39,547 bases of DNA from a virus, in the IMG/VR virus record IMGVR_UViG_3300046001_010713, positions 1-39,547 of that record; one strand, written 5' to 3'. Of this stretch, positions 9 to 14,370 are shown one piece after another; within the stretch, counting starts at the first letter, position 1, and each line of letters begins with the position of its first letter. The notes below the pieces were generated by a model. The model was given only the letters and a program-made list of their open reading frames with translations. It searched no databases and was not told the DNA's origin. Made by a program: the position numbers and the translations under genes.

Positions 9-764
9 TTATTTCTTTTTAGCCATTTGTGCTTTAATAGCAATATCTCTTCCTATTTTCCAATCTTCACTATCTACATCACCATCGCCATCTCGATCTT
101 TACCTTTCTTTTCTGCTACTACTACATCTAATGGATCTTTTTCTTCAATTTTTAAGGCATCCATTGTAGCATCAATTTTAGCTACATTTTCTTCACCATC
201 TAAGTAATCAAAAGCACCTTGTAAATAGTCTTTAGCTTTGATAATATTTGATTGCCACCATTGTGGAAAATCTATTTCAGCACCTGTATCACCGTATGCT
301 TTAATTTTCTTATATAACATAGCAGCCATTTTAGCTGTTCTAGTTAATTCATTTTTAAGCATTCCTGGTTCATCATCTTGATGGCCTATGTCAATATCTT
401 CATTAACAAATTTATTTTCTTCTCTATCTTTTTCAATAAGAGCTAACACATTAATTAATTCAGCGTATGCTTGATCTAAACCTTTAATTACTTCAGGATC
501 CTGGTCCATACCAAAGTCCATAGCTGCTTCTACTTTTTTAAGTGTAGAACCAATATCAAATATTTTACCAGTTAATTCTGTGCCTTGAACTTCAGCTATT
601 TTTTTAGCTTTAGCAGTAGCGATAGCATACATAGATGCTTCGTCACCTTTAAAGGATTTTTTCATTCCTTTAACGATATCTTCTTTTTTCTTTTTCTCCG
701 CTTTAGTAAGAGCTCTTTCTCTTACAGCACGGCGTATCATTTCTTTTAATTCTGAATGTTTCAT
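9..764 (-). CDS. Hypothetical phage protein, possible virion/internal protein
   Basis: 251 residues, function not recognised. The N-terminus (MKHSELKEMIRRAVRE) is an amphipathic helix of a type often seen at the start of T4-like marine phage proteins. The body is charged and helical and is rich in Lys, Glu and Asp. Near the C-terminus is an acidic DRDGDGDVDSEDW segment that looks like a calcium-binding EF-hand or dockerin loop, followed by a Lys-rich tail. Its ATG overlaps the TGA of the preceding gene (ATGA), so the two are translationally coupled. It is the last complete gene at the left edge. A role as a packaged or structural protein is inference from the neighbours. Confidence 0.75.
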   Translation of the reverse strand: MKHSELKEMIRRAVRERALTKAEKKKKEDIVKGMKKSFKGDEASMYAIATAKAKKIAEVQGTELTGKIFDIGSTLKKVEAAMDFGMDQDPEVIKGLDQAYAELINVLALIEKDREENKFVNEDIDIGHQDDEPGMLKNELTRTAKMAAMLYKKIKAYGDTGAEIDFPQWWQSNIIKAKDYLQGAFDYLDGEENVAKIDATMDALKIEEKDPLDVVVAEKKGKDRDGDGDVDSEDWKIGRDIAIKAQMAKKK

Positions 765-1855
765 TTATTAAGTTTTACTTTTGCTTTTTCAGTATTAGGA
801 ACAAATTGTTTTCCTTTTTTAGAGCCAGCTACTTTCTTACGAGCAGTAGCAGCGCGTTCATCTTTAGTCAAGCGATTTGCTTTAGCGCGAGGGAGACAAC
901 GAGTAGTTGCTTTACCTTTTTTCATTGTGCCACAAGGACCTGTAATGTTGCCTTGAGTATCAATACGAACCCAATCTTCTTTTTGGAACCAATCGCGTAA
1001 GGATTCATCAATATTTCTTTTTGCAATATATTCTTCTACTTTATCTTCTTTATATCCTAATAATCGGCCTATTTCTCTAGTATCTTCAGCTGTAGCGTTT
1101 GATGCTAGATATCCATTATATTTTTCAGCTAATGCTTTTAATTTTAATGCTTTTTCTTTAGATTCAGGTAAATAAGCGACATATGCCTCATATGGATTTC
1201 CTTCAACACTCATTACTTTAATACCATTGTCTTTTATAACTTGTTGAACACGTTCCCAATTTTCAGGAGTATTCGATTTTTTAACTATAAAAGCAATATC
1301 ACGTTTTTTATTAGCCAATGTAGTAATAGCATCAACATCAGTATATGCTTCGGATGGGTCTATATCTTCACTCATTAATCCTTTACATACTTTAACAGCG
1401 CGTCCTGATAGATATGCAGATGGTTTTTCACCAGCTGCGATGCGACGATTATAGTAAGCTCTGCCTTTAGGGCATAGCTTTTTTTCATTTAATTCAAATG
1501 GACGCTCATCAGGATAATTTTCATAATAACTATCCATTATACTAGAAGCTGTATCTTTATCTAGAATAGCGACCCAGGTAGAATTATCATCTTCTATTCC
1601 ATATGCTTTAAGAAAAACTTTTTCTTGATTTTTTGATTGGTTATAAAGTAAATCTTTAACAGTTTGTAACGGTATTGAAAATTTTACTCTTTCATCACCC
1701 CAACTATCTGGATCAACCCCTGATGGGATAATATCAAATACGAATATTACTTCATCGGGTTCACTAAAATCCCATTCATCAGCATCGCTTAAATCAATGT
1801 TGATGTTTTGATTTTCTTTTAGTACTTCTAATAGTATGTCTGTTAATTTAATCAA
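761..1855 (-). CDS. Hypothetical protein with Cys-containing C-terminal domain
   Basis: 364 residues, function unknown. The start is TTG, overlapping the TGA of the preceding gene (TTGA). It is chosen because it restores the N-terminus MIKLTDILLE, which matches that of the gene at 2118-2435 (MIKLLDILTE). No early in-frame ATG exists. Two basic Cys motifs are visible: LCPKGRAYYNRR...KVCKGLM in the middle and a C-terminal segment with GPCGTMKKGKATTRCLPRAK followed by a Lys-rich tail. Similar C-terminal segments occur in T4-like cyanophage proteins of unknown function. The first ten residues resemble a T4 capsid-targeting peptide ending in LxE. Confidence 0.75.
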   Translation of the reverse strand: MIKLTDILLEVLKENQNINIDLSDADEWDFSEPDEVIFVFDIIPSGVDPDSWGDERVKFSIPLQTVKDLLYNQSKNQEKVFLKAYGIEDDNSTWVAILDKDTASSIMDSYYENYPDERPFELNEKKLCPKGRAYYNRRIAAGEKPSAYLSGRAVKVCKGLMSEDIDPSEAYTDVDAITTLANKKRDIAFIVKKSNTPENWERVQQVIKDNGIKVMSVEGNPYEAYVAYLPESKEKALKLKALAEKYNGYLASNATAEDTREIGRLLGYKEDKVEEYIAKRNIDESLRDWFQKEDWVRIDTQGNITGPCGTMKKGKATTRCLPRAKANRLTKDERAATARKKVAGSKKGKQFVPNTEKAKVKLNK

Positions 1856-3615: not shown

Positions 3616-3623
3616 ATAAATAT
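3616..3623 (-). promoter_or_regulatory. Candidate late promoter element
   Basis: ATATTTAT on the coding strand, 16 bases before the start at 3599. It is one of about ten such elements at operon starts in the left and central parts. No TTTG -33 box accompanies it. The last base overlaps the stop of the upstream gene. Confidence 0.35.
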
Positions 3624-4192
3624 TAAGAGTTTATTTTATTTTTTAATTGTTGTATACGATCCATAATTTGCTTTTTAACTTCTGCTTTATCTAACCCATT
3701 TCCCACCCAATTTTGGATAGTACCATCTTCCATTACATAAGTTCCATTAATTAAATCATCTAAAAATTGATCAATGCCATCAGTAATATTATCAGCAAAA
3801 TATTGTGCATTTTTATGAATCATATTGCGTTCGTATTCTTCATATTTGCCTTCTAATTTTAATAGGCTTTCCATTTCTGTAACACAATGTAAACACATTT
3901 GATGGATTCCATACATTTGTTTGTCAAATCTATGTTTCATTGGTTTTGAACATTTTGGGCAAAGTACAGGAGTTCCTACAGCATCGGTTTTACGTAATGT
4001 ACGTTTAATACCGTTTTTAATAGTCCATGTTTTACCATTTTCTTCCCAAACATCACCTTCAACGTGATGTTCTTCTGCTTTAGTATAACCAACAGAAGTA
4101 ACGGTTTTATCATGTACTTTTTTTTGCGCTAGATTTCTCATGCGCTGTAGATCTCGTTCAGTAAATTGTTTCTTTAGTGTAGTTTCTTTCAT
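3623..4192 (-). CDS. Zinc-ribbon protein of T4-like phages, function unknown
   Basis: 189 residues. A four-Cys zinc-ribbon is clear: CPKC at 78-81 and CLHC at 100-103. The N-terminal part (MKETTLKKQFTERDLQRMRN) is a basic helix, followed by the segment VEGDVWEENGKTWTIKNGIK. The C-terminal part is helical and acidic. The same architecture occurs as an unassigned conserved protein in T4-like phages of marine bacteria. It starts four bases after the stop of the metalloprotease/ART gene and is probably co-transcribed with it. Confidence 0.8.
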   Translation of the reverse strand: MKETTLKKQFTERDLQRMRNLAQKKVHDKTVTSVGYTKAEEHHVEGDVWEENGKTWTIKNGIKRTLRKTDAVGTPVLCPKCSKPMKHRFDKQMYGIHQMCLHCVTEMESLLKLEGKYEEYERNMIHKNAQYFADNITDGIDQFLDDLINGTYVMEDGTIQNWVGNGLDKAEVKKQIMDRIQQLKNKINS

Positions 4193-4196
4193 AACT

Positions 4197-5405
4197 TTAT
4201 TTTGTACTTAAATATCCACTTTCAATATCTTCAAACTCGTCTTCGTAATTTTTAATTAACATGATGTCTACTTTTATAGGATTGGCAGCGTTAATTACTT
4301 CATCTTCTAATTGATCACTCAATTTATCCATAAACTTTGGATTAAAGAACAATTCAGCATCGCCTGCTTTGGCTCTCATTACTACAGGTACACCTTCACC
4401 TTTTCGTTCAGCAGTACTAATAGCAAATGAAGCTGCAGGATAATAACGAGTGCTCCATGAAGATAATTTACGACGAGAAGAATATTCTTGATTTGGAATT
4501 ATAATAGTATCTTTAGTTTCCTCTTTATTAGGATTTTTATATAGTTTTGCTGCTTCTTCTTCACTTATAAAGGTTCCTCTATAAATGTAAGTATCAGGTG
4601 ACAATCCAGTATCTCCTATTTCTGGGTAGTCTTTTTTTAATATTCTAAATGTTTCTAAATATGGATCTAAATTTATACTGCTGTATATATTAGATTCAGA
4701 GTCAGCATATTTTTTTAAAAAATCAAATAGTTTTTCTTCAGTAGGAGTGTCTACTTCTACTTCATCTTTATACCATCCTATTTTAACACCTGAATCTTTA
4801 TCTCCAAATAAAAAATCTCCATATTCACCTTCTTTAATTAAATGCTCAAATAAATTAGGTTTTGCTTGAGCAAAGTTACGCATAATAACAGCTGCTCTAG
4901 AATTTGCTTCATTTTCATCATCACTACCTGTTTCACCAGATGTAGGAGTTAAACGACCGTCTAAATCTTGTTTATAGTGAACTAATTCATGAGCCAAAGT
5001 TCTAAATACATCAGCAGGATGTCTTTTAGCTATTACTATATGAATTGACTTATCACTTGGTCTATACCCACCCCAAGAGCGTAAATCAATAGCTTCTTGA
5101 GAATCATCAGATAATGTAATTTTAGGTAATTTATCTAAGTGAAGTTCATCCATTACGTGTTTCATGAACTCACTAACTAGATCTTTATTTAAATTTTCTT
5201 CTAAATTTAACTTAGCAAGTTTTGTATAATATTTTGGATCTTCTGTAAGATGGTCTTTGGCAATGCGTCCAGCAACTTTTGGATCTTTTGTATGTTCCAT
5301 TTCAACTTTAACGCCTTTTTTCCATTCTTTTTTAAGAATGTCAATGTCAACACCATGTTTATTTGCAATGTCTTGCAATGTCATTCCTTTTGATAATCCT
5401 GCCAT
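4197..5405 (-). CDS. Fusion of HExxH metalloprotease-like and ADP-ribosyltransferase-like domains
   Basis: 402 residues. The ATG at 5405 is chosen because a longer frame to 5510 would translate through the terminator at 5437-5466. Residues 1-65 form a helical domain (MAGLSKGMTLQDIANKHGVD) that I recall as common in marine T4-like phages. A gluzincin-like motif follows: HELVHYKQ at 139-146, with E164/E166 in DDENEANSRA as possible third ligand. The C-terminal part has the three marks of an arginine-type ADP-ribosyltransferase: Arg276 in YIYRG, SSWSTRYYPAASFA at 315-328, and E367-x-E369 in LEDEV followed by a hydrophobic strand. T4 Alt is a virion-packaged ART, so delivery with the DNA is plausible; that is inference. 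Protease activity and targets are unknown. Confidence 0.8.
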   Translation of the reverse strand: MAGLSKGMTLQDIANKHGVDIDILKKEWKKGVKVEMEHTKDPKVAGRIAKDHLTEDPKYYTKLAKLNLEENLNKDLVSEFMKHVMDELHLDKLPKITLSDDSQEAIDLRSWGGYRPSDKSIHIVIAKRHPADVFRTLAHELVHYKQDLDGRLTPTSGETGSDDENEANSRAAVIMRNFAQAKPNLFEHLIKEGEYGDFLFGDKDSGVKIGWYKDEVEVDTPTEEKLFDFLKKYADSESNIYSSINLDPYLETFRILKKDYPEIGDTGLSPDTYIYRGTFISEEEAAKLYKNPNKEETKDTIIIPNQEYSSRRKLSSWSTRYYPAASFAISTAERKGEGVPVVMRAKAGDAELFFNPKFMDKLSDQLEDEVINAANPIKVDIMLIKNYEDEFEDIESGYLSTK

Positions 5406-5428: not shown

Positions 5429-5436
5429 ATAAATAT
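5429..5436 (-). promoter_or_regulatory. Candidate late promoter element
   Basis: TATATTTAT on the coding strand, 23 bases before the ATG at 5405 and directly after the terminator of the beta-barrel gene. A fresh promoter is needed here because the preceding terminator is strong. Confidence 0.45.
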
Positions 5437-5466
5437 AAAAAAAAGACCTGGGATAACCCAGGTCTT
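5437..5466 (-). terminator. Intrinsic terminator after the outer-membrane protein gene
   Basis: A perfect 10-bp stem (AAGACCTGGG / CCCAGGTCTT) with a 4-base loop is followed on the minus strand by a run of eight T. It lies just after the stop at 5488, in the gene-free interval 5406-5487. It is the strongest terminator in the left arm. Confidence 0.9.
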
Positions 5467-5487: not shown

Positions 5488-6024
5488 TTAGAATCGATAT
5501 AAAATTCCAAATTTAGGTGCGTTCAATTGATTATTAACACCTGTAAATCCAATTGAAAATGTAGATGTAGAACCAACATCTGTGTAGTCAATCAAACTAG
5601 CCAATGATGTACTAAGGGCTAAGTTTTTAGATACAAAGTAGTTAGCGCCAAGACCTACGTTTGCGTTTTTAACTGACGTTTCGTTATTGCCAGCTTTAGT
5701 AGTAGTGCTTGACAAACTTAATTGAGAGTAAACGTGAAATTTACTTCCAACACTTAATACGTAACATCTTCCAAAAGCACCAACACCATTTACTTTGGTG
5801 GTTGGGTTTTTACTAAATTCACCAGAAACACCTACGGCAAATTTATCAGTTAAAAAATATCCAGCGGCTGGATTGAGAAGGTACTGTCCATCAGTACCAG
5901 TTGCTTTTAAGTAAGACACTGTTCCTTCAGCAAATTTTTCTGCTTTTTTAAACTGTGCTTTTGTTGTAAACGACACTAGCATTAATGATAATGCGGTCAC
6001 AACGAATTTTACTTGTTTTTTCAT
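5488..6024 (-). CDS. Outer-membrane beta-barrel protein with signal peptide
   Basis: 178 residues from the ATG at 6024. A longer frame adds 13 residues that would read through the T-tract of the upstream hairpin. The first 24 residues are a Sec signal peptide (MKKQVKF, hydrophobic core, ending TTKA before Q). The mature part alternates short amphipathic beta strands and turns (NPAAGYFLTDKFAVGVSGEF, VGLGANYFVSKNLALSTSL) and ends in GILYRF, with the terminal aromatic typical of barrel proteins assembled by BAM. It resembles the small opacity/OmpA-type barrels of Bacteroidota. A role in altering the host surface, such as superinfection exclusion, is inference; a cellular origin of the gene is likely. 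Confidence 0.8.
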   Translation of the reverse strand: MKKQVKFVVTALSLMLVSFTTKAQFKKAEKFAEGTVSYLKATGTDGQYLLNPAAGYFLTDKFAVGVSGEFSKNPTTKVNGVGAFGRCYVLSVGSKFHVYSQLSLSSTTTKAGNNETSVKNANVGLGANYFVSKNLALSTSLASLIDYTDVGSTSTFSIGFTGVNNQLNAPKFGILYRF

Positions 6025-6040
6025 AATTGTTTTTTTGGTT

Positions 6041-6071
6041 AAAAAATAAAAAAGCAGAGACATAATGTCCC
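6041..6071 (-). terminator. Hairpin and T-tract in the leader of the beta-barrel gene
   Basis: Stem GGGACA / TGTCTC (6 bp, one G-T pair) with a 3-base loop, followed on the minus strand by TGCTTTTTTATTTTTT, ending 17 bases before the ATG at 6024. It can be the terminator of the primase-nuclease transcript or an attenuator in the beta-barrel leader. Confidence 0.55.
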
Positions 6072-7912: not shown

Positions 7913-7944
7913 TAAAGTTACGGGAAATTCTTTAGTCTACCAAA
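7913..7944 (-). promoter_or_regulatory. Host-type promoter for primase and nuclease
   Basis: TTTG (7941-7944), 20 bases, then TAACTTTA (7913-7920) on the coding strand. This fits the Bacteroidota -33/-7 pattern. It lies within the 3' end of the GIY-YIG gene and starts transcription about 25 bases before the primase ATG. Confidence 0.55.
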
Positions 7945-8360
7945 TCTTTCTTGAAAAACTTTCCTAAGATATTATCATTATAGGAGAGACTAGGTGAAAC
8001 AAGGCATTCAAACTTACATTGGTAATGCATTTCATAGTATGTAAGTTGTTTTTTAGTTTTACATGGTTTAAGTATCATACATTCAAAATGATCCTCACCT
8101 AATACTCTAACAGCTTCAAGTAATTCTTTAGAAGAACCCCAATATGTTTTCCAGTCACTTTCAACACGGACTATTTCGGTAGTAGGTTTACGTCCTGGTC
8201 CTATTTGTTCTGCTAGTTGTTTTTTGGTTAATTTTTTCTTTTTATTAAACCAAAAATATTTTTTACCAATGTAAAATTTTCCGTCTGTTAGGTTTGTAAT
8301 TTTATAAACAAAACCTAAGTAATCTTCAGGATTTAATATATCCCAATAATTCCATTTCAT
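7932..8360 (-). CDS. GIY-YIG family endonuclease
   Basis: 142 residues. The family signature is split between GFVYKITN (16-23) and FYIGKKYFW (29-37), followed by WKTYWGSSKEL (70-80) and a candidate catalytic Glu at 110 (YYEMHYQCKFEC). The insertion between motifs (about residues 38-60) is Lys-rich. Such free-standing nucleases of T4-like phages are often Seg-type homing endonucleases, but a DNA-processing role is equally possible. It lies between the structural module and the primase operon and starts six bases after the previous stop. Confidence 0.8.
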   Translation of the reverse strand: MKWNYWDILNPEDYLGFVYKITNLTDGKFYIGKKYFWFNKKKKLTKKQLAEQIGPGRKPTTEIVRVESDWKTYWGSSKELLEAVRVLGEDHFECMILKPCKTKKQLTYYEMHYQCKFECLVSPSLSYNDNILGKFFKKDLVD

Positions 8361-9531: not shown

Positions 9532-12500
9532 TTAACATGGACCTATATCTAAATACACATAATAATCATAAGTACCTGATACAATAGTAATACTACAATA
9601 AGCAGATGCTGTAAATAAGTCACATTGTGAATTACTACAACCACCAGTACCACTAACACCTGCTGCTACTTGTGCTCCACTGGCATTAGCAGCTAATTCT
9701 ATAGTATCACCAACAGATACACCAAATGTTCCACTATTAGTTACTGATTGAAATACTTCAATATTAGAATTTTTATAAATGGCCATATCTCCAGAAGTAG
9801 AATCTGTATTTGTAGTTTGCCAAATAACTTGATAAACTGGTGTAGGAGTAATAGTTGGTGTTGGTGTTGGAGTAGCGGTTATACTAGGAGTAGGTGTTAT
9901 TGATGGAGTAGCGGTTATTGATGGTGTAGGTGTTATACTTGGTGTTTGAGTTCTAGTTGGTGTAGGTGTAATAGTTGGTGTAGGTGTTACACTAGGACAA
10001 GCTCCTAATGATGTAACTATACCTCCAGTTCCAATATAACATTGACCACCAACTGAGAAATGTTTTAAAACTGTTGTTACTGTACAAGTAGCATTACTAT
10101 ATAATTGTTTACCTGCTGCTAGTACACCACAAGTATATACAGTTTGAGGAGAACTAGTTTGTGCACAAGCTTCAGCACAATCATTTCCCTCATAAACTAC
10201 AGTTGCTGTACAATTACAAGGTGTAACAGTAGGAGTTGGTGTTAATGTTCTAGTAGGTGTAATACTAGAAGTTGGTGTAATTGTTCTAGTAGGAGTGATA
10301 CTTGGAGTAGCAGTAATACTAGGTGTAGCTGTTCTAGTAGGGGTAATTGTAACAGTTGGTGTAATAGAAGCTGTTGGTGTAATACTAGGTGTTCTACTAA
10401 ATGTTGGTGTTGGAGTAATAGATGGTGTTGATGTTATTGATGGTGTTATAGTTCTAGTAGGAGTTACAGTAGGAGTAGCAGTAACAGACGGTGTAGGTGT
10501 TATACTAGGTGTAGCAGTTATACTAGGTGTAATTGTTCGTGTTGGAGTAATACTAGGTGTAGCTGTTATAGATGGTGTAGCAGTTATACTAGGTGTAGCT
10601 GTAATTGATGGAGTTATTGTTCTAGTTGGTGTTATACTAGGAGTAGCTGTAATACTAGGTGTTGGAGTGATAGAAGGTGTTACAGTTACACTTGGTGTTA
10701 CAGTTTGAGAAGGTGTAATTGTACTAGTAGGTGTAATTGATGGTGTTACTGTTACACTTGGAGTAACAGTTACAGATGGAGTTACAGTACTAGAAGGTGT
10801 AATTGTTCTAGTTGGTGTAATTGATGGAGTTACAGTTACACTAGGTGTTATAGTAACAGTAGGAGTTACAGTTTGTGAAGGTGTAATTGTTGTAGTTGGA
10901 GTTATACTAGGTGTTATAGTAACAGATGGCGTTACTGTACTTGTAGGAGTAATACTAGGAGTAGCAGTTACTGTTACAGTTGGTGTTATACTAGGAGTAA
11001 TTGTAACTGATGGTGTAATTGTACTTGTAGGAGTAATGCTCGGTGTTACAGTTATTGTAACTGATGGTGTAATAGAAGGTGTTATAGTAATACTAGGTGT
11101 AATAGTAGAAGTCGGAGTAATTGATGGAGTTACTGTAACAGTAGGAGTAATTGATGATGTTGGGGTTATAGTAACTGTAGGGGTAATACTTGGAGTAACA
11201 GTCACACTAGGTGTAACTGTACTAGTTGGTGTTATACTTGGGGTTACAGTTACAGTTGGAGTAACCGTCACACTTGGAGTTACAGTTACAGATGGAGTAA
11301 TAGTACTAGTTGGTGTAACACTTGGTGTTATAGTAACAGTTGGAGTTATACTAGATGTAGGTGTAATAGTTGGTGTTGGTGTTTCACTAGGTGTTACAGT
11401 TACACTTGGAGTAATAGTTTGAGAGGGAGTTACAGTAATAGTTGGGGTTATAGAAGGTGTTACTGTTACTGTTGGTGTTACAGATGCTGTAGGTGTAACT
11501 GTTAAAGTAGGAGTTATACTTGGAGTCTCAGTTATACTAGGAGTTATTGTAACAGTAGGGGTTACAGTTACACTAGGAGTAACAGTAATGGTTGGAGTTG
11601 TAGATACAACAGGTGTTGCTGTTACACTAGGAGTGGGTGTTATAGTTGGAGTAATAGATGGAGTAACTGTTGATGTTGGTGTTTCACTAGGTGTTACAGT
11701 TACAGTTACAGTAGGAGTTACTGTTTCACTAGGAGTAACAGTCACTGTAGGTGTAATAGTAACACTAGGTGTTATTGAAGGGGTTTCTGTTATAGAAGGT
11801 GTAATAGTAACAGATGGGGTAACAGTCACACTTGGAGTAATAGTAGAAGTTGGAGTAATACTTGGAGTAACAGTTACACTAGGAGTTACAGTTTCCGAAG
11901 GAGTAATTGTTACACTAGGTGTTACAGTAAAAGTTGGTGTAACTGAAGGTGTTATAGTTACAGTAGGTGTAATAGTTTGAGTTGGAGTAACCGTCACACT
12001 TGGAGTAACAGTTACAGTTACAGACGGTGTTACTGTTTCACTTGGAGTTACAGTAACAGTTGGTGTTACAGTTTCACTCGGAGTAACAGTCACACTTGGA
12101 GTTACTGTAGCTGTAGGAGTTACAGTAGGTGTAATTGTTTCAGAAGGAGTAATTGTAACAGTAGGAGTTATTGTTTGTGAAGGTGTAATTGTTGTTGTTG
12201 GTGTAATTGAAGGTGTGATTGTAACTGTAGGAGTTACAGTTTCACTTGGTGTAATTGTAACAGTAGGAGTAATATTAGGTGTTTCTGTTATAGAAGGTGT
12301 AATTGTTACAGTTGGTGTTACAGTAGGAGTAATTGTCTCACTTGGAGTAATAGTAACTGTTGGTGTTACTGTTTGAGATGGAGTAATAGTAGTAGTAGGA
12401 GTAACACTAGGTGTTACAGTTTCACTAGGTGTTACAGTTACAGTAGCTGTAGGTGTTATAGAAGGTGTTACTGTTACAGACGGAGTAACAGTAGGAGTTA

Positions 12501-14370
12501 CAGTCTCACTAGGTGTTATAGTAACTGAAGGAGTAATTGTTTGAGTTGGAGTGACAGTTGTACTTGGAGTTACAGTTACAGTAACACTTGGTGTTATAGT
12601 TGATGTAGGTGTTACAGTAGAAGTAGGAGTAATAGTTGGTGTTTCAGTAATAGTAGGTGTAATAGTAACTGTTGGTGTTACTGTTTCACTCGGAGTTATC
12701 GTAACTGAAGGGGTAATTGTAGAAGTTGGCGTTACAGTTGGTGTAACTGTTTCACTTGGAGTAATCGTAACACTAGGAGTTATTGTTGGGGTTGTACTTG
12801 GAGTAGTAGTAACTGTAGGAGTTACAGTTACAGAAGCCTCTATAGTTGCTGATGGTGTAAAAGAAGGTGTTCTACTTACTGTATGGCTTGGTGTTACAGT
12901 GACAGTAGGAGTAACAGTTGGTGTTTCAGTTGGTGTAAGTGAAGGTGTTGATGTTATTGATGGAGTAACAGTTGCTGTAGGGGTTTCACTTGGTGTAACA
13001 GATACAGTAGGAGTAATAGTTTCACTTGGAGTGATTGTAACAGTAGGGGTTAATGTTGATGTTGGTGTTACTGTAGGAGTAATACTTTCACTCGGAGTTA
13101 TTGTTACTGATGGAGTGATAGTTGTAGTAGGAGTAACAGATGGTGTTTCTGATGGTGTAACAGTAGGTGTTGGAGTTTCAGTTGCAGTAGGTGTAATCGT
13201 TGCAGTAGGTGTAATTGAAGGTGTTTCAGTTATACTAGGAGTGATTGTAACTGTTGGTGTTACAGTTTCACTTGGAGTTATTGTAGGAGTAACAGTTATA
13301 CTTGGGGTAATAGTAGATGTCGGTGTTATAGATGGTGTTACAGTAACAGTAGGTGTTATAGTACTTGTAGGAGTAATACTAGGTGTTTCTGTAATGCTAG
13401 GTGTAATTGTTACAGTAGGTGTAATTGTTTCACTCGGAGTGATAGTTGGTGTTGGTGTTAATGTTTGAGTTGGAGTTATAGTAGGGGTTACTGTTGCACT
13501 TGGTGTTACAGTTACTGTTGGAGTTATAGTTTGAGTTGGTGTTACAGTAGCAGTAGGTGTAATAGTAGGTGTTATAGTTTCACTCGGTGTGATTGTTACT
13601 GTTGGCGTTATAGTAACTGATGGTGTAACAGTTGCTGTTGGAGTTATTGTTGTTGCTACAGTACTTGTAGGAGTAACTGTAGGAGTAATAGTTTCACTTG
13701 GAGTTATAGTAACTGATGGTGTAATAGTTTGAGTTGGAGTAATACTTGGAGTAACAGTTACACTTGGAGTTACTGTTTGAGATGGTGTAACAGTTACACT
13801 TGGAGTTACAGTTTCACTAGGTGTAATTGTAACTGTAGGAGTTATAGTTTCACTAGGAGTAATAGTTCTAGTTGGTGTAATAGTTGGTGTTGTACTAGGA
13901 GTTACAGTTACTGTTGGAGTTATAGTAGAGGTAACAGTAGCTGTAGGTGTTATAGACGGTGTTATTGTTTTAGTAGGAGTTATAGTAACCGATGGAGTAA
14001 CAGTTGCGGTAGGAGTAATAGTTGAAGCTACAGTTGCTGTAGGAGTAACTGAAAGGGTTTTTGTTATGGTAGGAGTTATAGAAGGAGTTCTAGTGATACT
14101 TGGAGTAATACTAGGTGTTGCAGTTACTGTTACAGTAGGTGTAGGTGTAAAAGTTGGAGGAGGAGTAAATAATATAAGTGTATTACTTTGAAAAAAAGGA
14201 TCAACCGCTTGTATATAAGCAGCATATGTTGCTGAAGGAACAGGAGCATAAGAAGCAGATCCACTTGAGTTATTAGCATATATAATGACATCCTGCAAAC
14301 CAGTTTCATAATACTGGTCTACATAAAGCACTGAAGCTGTAACATCAAATGAAGCTGAAGTGTATCCCAT
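9532..14370 (-). CDS. Giant Thr/Pro/Ser-repeat fibre-like surface protein
   Basis: 1612 residues. The first ~68 residues are a globular beta domain. About 1,315 residues (to ~1385) are then almost pure TP(S/T)xT(V/I) hexads. A Cys-rich domain of about 75 residues follows (CNCTATVVYEGNDCAEAC ... LYSNATC ... CYIGTGG), then a second short repeat block (about 1460-1510) and a C-terminal domain of about 100 residues (VYQVIWQTTNTDSTSGDMAI ... CSNSQCDLF ... YVYLDIGPC). Repeated prolines predict an extended stalk, with small domains near the tip. It lies in the tail module, so a long fibre or virion decoration is likely. The repeats could carry O-glycans, though the Asp of the known Bacteroidota sequon is absent. 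Confidence 0.8.
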   Translation of the reverse strand: MGYTSASFDVTASVLYVDQYYETGLQDVIIYANNSSGSASYAPVPSATYAAYIQAVDPFFQSNTLILFTPPPTFTPTPTVTVTATPSITPSITRTPSITPTITKTLSVTPTATVASTITPTATVTPSVTITPTKTITPSITPTATVTSTITPTVTVTPSTTPTITPTRTITPSETITPTVTITPSETVTPSVTVTPSQTVTPSVTVTPSITPTQTITPSVTITPSETITPTVTPTSTVATTITPTATVTPSVTITPTVTITPSETITPTITPTATVTPTQTITPTVTVTPSATVTPTITPTQTLTPTPTITPSETITPTVTITPSITETPSITPTSTITPTVTVTPSITPTSTITPSITVTPTITPSETVTPTVTITPSITETPSITPTATITPTATETPTPTVTPSETPSVTPTTTITPSVTITPSESITPTVTPTSTLTPTVTITPSETITPTVSVTPSETPTATVTPSITSTPSLTPTETPTVTPTVTVTPSHTVSRTPSFTPSATIEASVTVTPTVTTTPSTTPTITPSVTITPSETVTPTVTPTSTITPSVTITPSETVTPTVTITPTITETPTITPTSTVTPTSTITPSVTVTVTPSTTVTPTQTITPSVTITPSETVTPTVTPSVTVTPSITPTATVTVTPSETVTPSVTPTTTITPSQTVTPTVTITPSETITPTVTPTVTITPSITETPNITPTVTITPSETVTPTVTITPSITPTTTITPSQTITPTVTITPSETITPTVTPTATVTPSVTVTPSETVTPTVTVTPSETVTPSVTVTVTPSVTVTPTQTITPTVTITPSVTPTFTVTPSVTITPSETVTPSVTVTPSITPTSTITPSVTVTPSVTITPSITETPSITPSVTITPTVTVTPSETVTPTVTVTVTPSETPTSTVTPSITPTITPTPSVTATPVVSTTPTITVTPSVTVTPTVTITPSITETPSITPTLTVTPTASVTPTVTVTPSITPTITVTPSQTITPSVTVTPSETPTPTITPTSSITPTVTITPSVTPTSTITPSVTVTPSVTVTPTVTVTPSITPTSTVTPSVTVTPSITPTVTITPTSSITPTVTVTPSITPTSTITPSITITPSITPSVTITVTPSITPTSTITPSVTITPSITPTVTVTATPSITPTSTVTPSVTITPSITPTTTITPSQTVTPTVTITPSVTVTPSITPTRTITPSSTVTPSVTVTPSVTVTPSITPTSTITPSQTVTPSVTVTPSITPTPSITATPSITPTRTITPSITATPSITATPSITATPSITPTRTITPSITATPSITPTPSVTATPTVTPTRTITPSITSTPSITPTPTFSRTPSITPTASITPTVTITPTRTATPSITATPSITPTRTITPTSSITPTRTLTPTPTVTPCNCTATVVYEGNDCAEACAQTSSPQTVYTCGVLAAGKQLYSNATCTVTTVLKHFSVGGQCYIGTGGIVTSLGACPSVTPTPTITPTPTRTQTPSITPTPSITATPSITPTPSITATPTPTPTITPTPVYQVIWQTTNTDSTSGDMAIYKNSNIEVFQSVTNSGTFGVSVGDTIELAANASGAQVAAGVSGTGGCSNSQCDLFTASAYCSITIVSGTYDYYVYLDIGPC
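9838..9995 (-). repeat. Second TP(S/T) repeat block of the giant protein
   Basis: A shorter run of the same hexad-coding repeats separates the Cys-rich domain from the C-terminal domain. It is in frame with the long block and uses the same codons. Confidence 0.8.
10215..14160 (-). repeat. 18-base-period repeat array coding for Thr/Pro/Ser hexads
   Basis: Nearly 4 kb of degenerate 18-base units on the coding strand (ACACC(T/A) plus (A/T)C(T/A)GTTACT-like sextets) encode TP(S/T)xT(V/I). Many neighbouring units differ only at third positions, which fits expansion by unequal recombination followed by drift. The opposite strand therefore shows long open frames rich in Gly and Val, which are not genes. 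Confidence 0.9.

What the first reader, a model, noticed from the sequence alone, without database searches (positions are those of the whole stretch)
4197..5405. A metalloprotease-like domain fused to an ADP-ribosyltransferase-like domain, possibly virion-delivered
One 402-residue protein carries HELVH (139-143) with a downstream ENEAN segment, and the R / SSWST / ExE triad of arginine-type ARTs (Arg276, 315-320, E367-x-E369). T4 Alt, a packaged ART, modifies host RNA polymerase at infection. A protease plus ART in one phage protein is not something I know. The late-type promoter and the neighbouring genes with capsid-targeting-like N-termini make a packaged host-takeover effector a reasonable hypothesis.
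Basis: partly seen in the sequence, partly recalled or inferred. Interest (0 to 1): 0.85.

Follow-up and report, generated by a model that had tools for sequence, protein, structure and literature searches.

The report
Phage protein joining protease and ADP-ribosyltransferase
A virus of bacteria encodes one protein that looks like a zinc protease joined to an enzyme that tags other proteins with ADP-ribose, probably to take over the host cell, and it is a new variation on a kind of phage weapon that is already described.

Summary
On the minus strand, 4197-5405, a 402-residue protein has every motif named, at the stated positions. It has three parts: DUF5661 (12-66), a zincin-type metallopeptidase (about 70-190) and an ADP-ribosyltransferase (ART)-like domain (195-402). 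HExxH and E164 are invariant in the 21 sequences aligned. R276, S316-x-S318 and E367-x-E369 are invariant in all 11 distinct ART-bearing proteins found. A weak model of the ART part matched mainly ART-superfamily structures, at modest Z (best 6.2). No Pfam, NCBIfam or PDB sequence matched that part, and comparison with T4 ModA/Alt was not significant.

Peptidase-ART fusions in phage "polyvalent proteins" are in print (PMC5512222), so the pairing is not new. Different here are the R-S-E-type ART, a module present or absent in one syntenic locus, and fusions to ParB-like or nucleotidyltransferase-like parts. Virion delivery is plausible but indirect: a late-type box, T4-type prohead protease in relatives, and cleavable-looking leaders on 9 of the 11, though not on the window's own protein. 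Best reading: a late-made, probably packaged effector that ADP-ribosylates a host protein.

The parts
4197..5405 (-). Whole 402-aa protein: DUF5661 + zincin-type metallopeptidase + ART-like domain
   Evidence: ORF list and translation
5208..5405 (-). DUF5661 domain, residues 1-66 (Pfam match 12-66, E 2.3e-14)
4836..5198 (-). Zincin-type metallopeptidase domain, residues about 70-190
   Evidence: PHROG 87 metallo-protease E 8e-4; model and structure matches
4977..4991 (-). HELVH, residues 139-143 (on helix 130-148 of the model)
   Evidence: HE..H invariant in 21 aligned sequences, 11 of them fetched by motif-bearing patterns; also in 7 of 7 of a set fetched otherwise; helix in model
4914..4916 (-). 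E164, predicted third zinc ligand on helix 162-181
   Evidence: invariant in 21 aligned sequences and 7 of 7; E166 varies
4200..4823 (-). ART-like domain, residues 195-402
   Evidence: 11 distinct proteins; structure matches mainly ART superfamily
4578..4580 (-). Arg276 on the first core strand (YRG)
   Evidence: invariant 11 of 11; strand in model
4452..4460 (-). S316-W-S318, just before a helix
   Evidence: invariant 11 of 11; helix follows in model
4299..4307 (-). E367-x-E369, predicted catalytic E-x-E a few residues before the last core strand
   Evidence: invariant 11 of 11; in a stretch with pLDDT under 50
5429..5437 (-). TATATTTAT, late-type promoter-like box ending 23 nt before the start codon
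   Evidence: ATATTTAT also within 80 nt upstream of 10 of 10 other ART genes
5445..5464 (-). Hairpin followed by a T run: terminator-like element between the upstream gene and this gene
   Evidence: read from sequence
3623..4192 (-). Downstream neighbour (189 aa, two CxxC pairs), found near the metallopeptidase gene with or without ART
   Evidence: 18 of 21 loci; not L008, L009, L036
2118..2435 (-). Neighbour with MIKLLDILTE leader, candidate head cargo
761..1855 (-). Neighbour with MIKLTDILLE leader (TTG start), candidate head cargo

Best explanation
It is a late-expressed, modular phage effector of a T4-type (gp21/gp23-encoding) myovirus, probably of Bacteroidota. The N-terminal DUF5661 module is of unknown role. 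The middle domain is a minimal gluzincin (zinc held by H139, H143 and E164; E140 as general base). The C-terminal domain is an R-S-E-type mono-ADP-ribosyltransferase that should bind NAD+ through R276 and S316-W-S318 and transfer ADP-ribose with E367-x-E369, most likely to arginine on a host protein. Shown here: the motifs and their conservation, zincin-like and ART-like structure matches at modest scores, conserved synteny, presence or absence of the ART module in the same slot, and the box upstream. Inferred: catalysis, zinc binding, arginine specificity, that the box is a late promoter, packaging in the head and ejection into the host, the host target, and whether the protease cuts its own linker (low-confidence residues 187-217) to free the ART or cuts a separate protein.
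For: Motifs at the stated places. Zincin: PHROG 87; model pLDDT 75-96 per ten-residue block over residues 71-180, with HELVH and E164 on two successive helices; structure rows include IrrE/PprI, selecase, Wss1, lethal factor and ArdC. ART: R, S-x-S and E-x-E invariant in 11 of 11, on the first strand, before a helix and before the last strand of the model. Of 41 entries listed with Z 2 or more, 35 are ART-superfamily by title or recall, including the first 17 rows. The best viral model match has E 1.4e-5, to an unannotated mimivirus protein; a Salmonella phage protein named ART-PolyVal-like also appears, E 0.087. Purifying selection. ATATTTAT upstream of the window gene and of 10 of 10 other ART genes, against a shuffle mean of 0.9 and maximum of 4. 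Exonuclease, peptidase-ART and the 189-aa neighbour lie in that order in 12 of 12 ART loci. gp21-type protease and gp23 in 7 of 7 related records searched, 4 of them ART-bearing. [LI]xE at positions 11-16 in 9 of the 11 ART-bearing proteins.
Against: The ART model is weak (mean pLDDT 67, pTM 0.62; E-x-E stretch under 50). Foldseek gave no PDB match at E 0.001 or better for either model. The best Z values are 8.4 (peptidase model, to a protein titled hypothetical) and 6.2 (ART model), a range that the tool warns can be a common arrangement. No Pfam ART family matched any of 11 members. hhalign to T4 ModA/ModB/Alt gave probability 0.3%, E 0.22, score 15.4, and the best of 60 column-shuffled controls scored 24.9. 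The window's own protein and L003 lack a leader, and [LI]xE at positions 6-16 is common: 95 of 264 other ORFs. In L003, L005 and L109 the box ends 4 nt before the assumed start codon, too near for a usual promoter unless translation starts later. No virion proteomics was found.
Confidence: 0.55

Rival explanations
1. The protein is made late and acts only inside the producing cell, not packaged: the ART modifies host or phage proteins during assembly or late transcription.
For: The window protein and L003 lack a leader; a late-type box precedes the gene.
Against: 9 of the 11 ART-bearing proteins have [LI]xE at positions 11-16; some standalone peptidase relatives start in the register of T4 IpII/IpIII, for example L038 and L039; the gene sits beside genes with a shared leader.
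Confidence: 0.3
2. The metallopeptidase is the working part, processing itself and other head cargo during maturation, and the C-terminal domain is cargo that can be exchanged.
For: The peptidase is the constant part: it occurs alone, with DUF5661, with ParB, with nucleotidyltransferase-like parts or with a different C-terminal part. Iyer et al. propose autoprocessing for such domains (PMC5512222, passage).
Against: gp21-type prohead protease is present for head maturation; the ART domain shows the same dN/dS as the peptidase between the window and L003.
Confidence: 0.3
3. The C-terminal domain keeps the ART fold but acts as a NADase or on nucleic acid or small molecules, for example in counter-defence, rather than modifying host proteins.
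For: The clades that hold R-S-E ARTs include NADases (PMC9503650, passage). Some relatives carry nucleotidyltransferase-like parts: the immuto protein is annotated NadR, and L015 matches CoaD best (E 2.9e-7, below its cut-off) and NMN adenylyltransferases more weakly, a possible link to NAD supply.
Against: E-x-E points to arginine modification by a recalled rule; no direct test.
Confidence: 0.2
4. The C-terminal domain is not an ART: the motif and the structure matches are coincidence in a new alpha/beta fold.
For: Weak model, no sequence-family match, hhalign not significant.
Against: 35 of 41 listed structure rows are ARTs, 2 uncertain and 4 unrelated, and all five predicted catalytic residues are invariant.
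Confidence: 0.1

Closest known systems
Polyvalent proteins of phages and conjugative elements (Iyer et al. 2017, PMC5512222)
   Same: Several unrelated enzymatic domains in one phage protein; zincin metallopeptidase as the hub domain; fusion to ART and to ParB-like domains; proposed delivery with the genome (passages).
   Different: Polyvalent ARTs there have an H-Y-D active site; this one is R-S-E. This protein is small (402 aa), carries DUF5661, and lies in phages whose relatives encode a T4-type gp21 protease.
T4 Alt, ModA, ModB
   Same: R-S-E type motif order Y-R-G ... S-x-S ... A-x-x-F-A ... E-x-E as in ModA relatives; T4-type head genes in the relatives; Alt is head-packaged and ejected (PMC9026906, passages).
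   Different: No significant profile match; fused to a peptidase and DUF5661, and in homologues to ParB-like or nucleotidyltransferase-like parts; no leader on the window protein.
Synechococcus phage B23 and S-SRM01 short metallopeptidase proteins; Flavobacterium phage immuto_2-6A protein immuto26A_183
   Same: The same peptidase domain (46%, 35% and 25% identity); immuto shares much of the gene order.
   Different: No ART match was found in them. Immuto's 907-aa protein is annotated NadR and has a second HExxH by eye.

Membership tests
Zincin-like (gluzincin) metallopeptidase | HExxH on an active-site helix | tested here: met
   HELVH on helix 130-148; HE..H invariant in 21 aligned sequences, partly by choice of search pattern, and in 7 of 7 of a set fetched otherwise
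Zincin-like (gluzincin) metallopeptidase | Glu third ligand on the following helix | tested here: met
   E164 on helix 162-181, invariant in 21 and in 7 of 7
Zincin-like (gluzincin) metallopeptidase | Zincin fold | tested here: met
   The listed rows are nearly all zincins or the similar YbeY fold over residues 61-195; best Z 8.4, Foldseek best E 0.04, so modest
Zincin-like (gluzincin) metallopeptidase | Zinc-dependent proteolysis | not testable with these tools
   Needs purified protein
R-S-E clade of the ART superfamily | Arg on strand 1, Ser of S-x-S, Glu of E-x-E in order | tested here: met
   R276, S316/S318, E367/E369 invariant in 11 of 11, placed on the model
R-S-E clade of the ART superfamily | ART fold | tested here: inconclusive
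   35 of 41 listed rows are ARTs, but best Z 6.2 and a weak model
R-S-E clade of the ART superfamily | NAD-dependent ADP-ribosyl transfer | not testable with these tools
   Needs assay
Alt/ModA/ModB family | Significant sequence-profile similarity | tested here: inconclusive
   hhalign probability 0.3%, E 0.22, few sequences on both sides; the best of 60 shuffled controls scored higher
ART-PolyVal (H-Y-D) family | His, Tyr, Asp active site | tested here: not met
   Arg-Ser-Glu instead; definition from PMC5512222
Phage polyvalent protein (class, Iyer et al. 2017) | Two or more unrelated effector domains in one mobile-element protein | tested here: met
   DUF5661 + peptidase + ART-like; homologues add ParB-like and nucleotidyltransferase-like parts
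Phage polyvalent protein (class, Iyer et al. 2017) | Delivered into the host with the genome | not testable with these tools
   Only indirect signs
T4-type CTS-bearing internal head protein | N-terminal leader ending in [LI]xE | tested here: not met
   Absent from the window protein and L003; [LI]xE present at positions 11-16 in 9 of the 11 ART-bearing proteins

The most novel reading that the evidence does not exclude
In a lineage of T4-type Bacteroidota phages, one syntenic late gene is an exchangeable effector platform. A head-cargo metallopeptidase carries interchangeable N-terminal modules (T4-like leader, DUF5661, degenerate ParB, nucleotidyltransferase-like) and C-terminal modules, one of which is a new R-S-E ART family. 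It is packaged by a leader system that the same phages put on many unrelated proteins, and after ejection the peptidase frees the ART, in some members together with an adenylyltransferase-like domain that might supply NAD as its substrate.
Probability: 0.3. Interest if true: 0.75.

Novelty: new variant of a known kind. Interest (0 to 1): 0.52.

Why it matters
If the reading holds, Alt-style head-delivered ADP-ribosylation extends from Tevenvirinae to phages of other bacterial groups, joined to a protease on one chain and exchanged as a module. The N-terminal leader shared by unrelated neighbouring proteins would also let one predict the injected proteome of these uncultured phages from sequence alone. 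The leader idea and the packaging of the peptidase are testable by virion proteomics of the cultured relative, Flavobacterium phage immuto.

Tried and rejected
Sequence searches of PDB with the whole protein (none) and with the ART profile (none); the peptidase profile gave 4 weak rows, best E 0.069. The ART region had no convincing match in phage records (one row, E 4), and none of 261 pattern stretches in genome contigs encoded a relative, so it was found only in IMG/VR contigs. The ART profile in phages phiN3, immuto, S-SRM01 and B23: none of 4, with no positive control in that call, although a phiN3 protein appeared among structure matches. hhalign of the ART family with T4 ModA/ModB/Alt and five relatives was not significant. 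Pfam scan of 11 ART members: only chance-level families.

The TATATTTAT box alone is not more frequent in the window than chance (30 of 100 shuffles reach 5), nor is ATATTTAT (71 of 100 reach 10). The signal is in its position: ATATTTAT in 8 of 42 upstream stretches of the minus-strand ORFs that I chose, against none of 1000 shuffles reaching 8, and in 10 of 10 other ART genes. L071, without ART, lacks it.

The general [LI]xE test is only modest: 19 of 31 peptidase proteins against 95 of 264 other ORFs at positions 6-16, p 0.006, and 10 of 31 against 36 of 264 at positions 7-8, p 0.011, after reduction from 926 ORFs to 295 non-redundant N-termini. The other ORFs include candidate cargo. The leader pattern (looser than MIKLxDILxE) was stronger: 101 of 1818 ORF starts, against a shuffle mean of 0.1; those loci overlap, so the 1818 are not independent.

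The first ParB comparison contained a few columns of the peptidase on both sides. I repeated it without them: probability 76%, E 2.3e-5, score 34.5, against at most 20.1 in 60 column shuffles.

Papers: PMC5512222, PMC9503650, PMC7824862, PMC9026906 and PMC3012670 were seen as passages only. The rest were seen as listings only. DUF5661 is named in no held paper. Searches for immuto virion proteomics found none. That this ART family is not in print rests only.

Full report
What is there. The finding lies on the minus strand. The ORF runs from ATG at 5405 to the stop at 4197-4199, 402 aa. The window is a 39.5 kb virus record. An identical protein occurs on two longer IMG/VR contigs.

Domains. Pfam recognises only DUF5661 at 12-66 (E 2.3e-14). 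PHROG 87, metallo-protease, matches 73-174 weakly (E 8e-4). Nothing curated matches the C-terminal half.

Metallopeptidase. In an alignment of 21 sequences, the window's included, H139, E140, H143 and E164 are invariant. Eleven of these came only from a scan whose patterns hold HExxH or the ENE segment, so the agreement is partly built in. A 7-sequence set fetched by other patterns or by tblastn agrees. E166 is Q in L091 and W in L095, so E164 is the likelier zinc ligand. AlphaFold2 gives residues 71-180 pLDDT 75-96 by block, with HELVH on helix 130-148 and E164 on helix 162-181. This is the arrangement that Iyer et al. describe for zincin peptidases of polyvalent proteins (PMC5512222, passage). 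Foldseek and VIA list IrrE/PprI, selecase, Wss1, lethal factor, ACE and ArdC. The best Z is 8.4, to AQ_1354, and no Foldseek E-value is below 0.001.

ART-like domain. Scans of IMG/VR gave 14 contigs with 11 distinct proteins, the window's included (identities checked). R276, S316, W317, S318, E367 and E369 are invariant in all 11, at 57-82% identity to the window; 55 of 208 positions are invariant. T319 varies. A model of the domain alone is mediocre (pLDDT 67, pTM 0.62), but it puts R276 on the first core strand, S-x-S before a helix and E-x-E, in a stretch under pLDDT 50, a few residues before the last core strand. Foldseek against PDB found nothing significant. VIA re-alignment of Foldseek's top 1000 listed 41 entries with Z 2 or more. 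Thirty-five are ART-superfamily (KptA/Tpt1, cholera-type, pertussis, exotoxin A, PARPs), two are uncertain (CNFy, VPA0770) and four are unrelated. The best Z is 6.2, which alone would be weak; the agreement among rows and the invariant motif are what persuade. Among viral models the best match is an unannotated mimivirus protein, E 1.4e-5. dN/dS is about 0.10 for both domains between the window and L003, and 0.06 to 0.34 for four other ART pairs.

Modularity and synteny. In 12 of 12 ART loci tested the exonuclease gene, the peptidase-ART gene and the 189-aa neighbour lie in that order; primase and GIY-YIG genes precede them in 11 of 12 (L110 ends before them) and the holin-like gene follows in 10 of 12. 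L016, L018 and L019 have a nucleotidase-like gene in between. The same slot holds L005 (DUF5661 + ParB + peptidase, then a stop and the next gene; no ART), L024, L025 and L071 (other C-terminal parts), L046 (nucleotidyltransferase-like + peptidase) and immuto26A_183. The peptidase domains of the window and L005 are 89% identical, so I infer a recent gain or loss of the ART. Six of the 11 ART-bearing proteins were compared as one profile with the clear ParB of L024/L005 (Pfam ParB_N in L005; PHROG ParB in L024). With peptidase columns removed the match has probability 76% and E 2.3e-5, above 60 shuffles. L015 has a nucleotidyltransferase-like N-terminus, best match CoaD below its cut-off; L109 resembles it by eye.

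Expression and packaging. ATATTTAT lies upstream of 8 of 42 window genes, against none of 1000 shuffles reaching 8, and within 80 nt upstream of 10 of 10 other distinct ART genes, against a shuffle maximum of 4 in 1000. In L003, L005 and L109 it ends 4 nt from the assumed start, which does not suit a promoter. All 7 related records searched, 4 of them ART-bearing, encode T4-type prohead protease and gp23; in one of them gp23 is cut by the contig end. A leader of the general form M[IKR][KRT][LIVYF]xx[LIF][LI]xE stands on 57 distinct ORFs, whose remaining parts fall into 16 groups without detectable similarity; the examples printed for 14 of the 16 groups start MIKL. T4 IpII and IpIII begin MKTYQEFIAE, with the same [LI]8 and E10. 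In T4 IPIII, residues 4 and 7 matter most for targeting and residues 8 and 10 for processing (PMC9026906, passage). Several standalone peptidase relatives start in the same register, for example MKKFKQYLKE and MKAFRNFIKE. Nine of the 11 ART-bearing proteins have [LI]xE at positions 11-16, where 95 of 264 other ORFs have it at positions 6-16. The window protein and L003 have none. So delivery is likely for the family and unproved for this member.

Comparison with the known. Peptidase-ART fusions are published as part of polyvalent proteins. Head-packaged ARTs and the enrichment of ARTs in myoviruses are published too (PMC9503650, passages). What differs is the R-S-E active site, where polyvalent ARTs were described as H-Y-D. 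Sequence kinship with Alt/ModA could not be shown: the one aligned stretch does put SWST against the ModA serine motif, but at probability 0.3%, and the best of 60 column-shuffled controls scored higher.

Verdict. A real, conserved, probably enzymatic two-enzyme phage protein; a new variant of a known kind. The main uncertainties are the ART fold (modest scores), the target, and whether this member is packaged.

Noticed in passing
761-1855 and 2118-2435; many loci: A shared N-terminal leader, mostly MIKLxDILxE, stands on 57 distinct ORFs in 16 groups of otherwise dissimilar proteins; it looks like this phage group's capsid-targeting signal.
   Followed up: partly
9532-14370, minus strand: A 1612-aa protein made mostly of Thr/Pro-rich TPSITPTxT repeats, among tail genes.
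   Followed up: no
5488-6063, minus strand: A 191-aa protein with a signal-peptide-like start and, by eye, outer-membrane-barrel-like sequence just upstream; of the 21 loci tested only L011 (the identical contig) has it, and L003 has a phosphoesterase-like ORF there.
   Followed up: partly
L010:4270-6993 (immuto26A_183): A 907-aa protein of a cultured Flavobacterium phage, annotated NadR, holds this peptidase domain and by eye a second HExxH near its C-terminus.
   Followed up: partly
L008:3881-5834 (Synechococcus phage S-SRM01): A standalone copy of the peptidase lies next to a separate gene annotated cytidyltransferase; in L046 and relatives the two kinds of domain are one protein.
   Followed up: no
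3623-4192, minus strand: A 189-aa protein with two CxxC pairs lies near the peptidase gene in 18 of 21 loci whether or not ART is present; function unknown.
   Followed up: partly
7932-8360, minus strand: PHROG 447 calls this protein NAD synthetase while other PHROGs call it homing endonuclease; the first label looks wrong.
   Followed up: no
L109:3528-5627: The nucleotidyltransferase-like N-terminus appears by eye to have lost the usual HxGH motif (PPYNNQ), so it may be inactive there.
   Followed up: no
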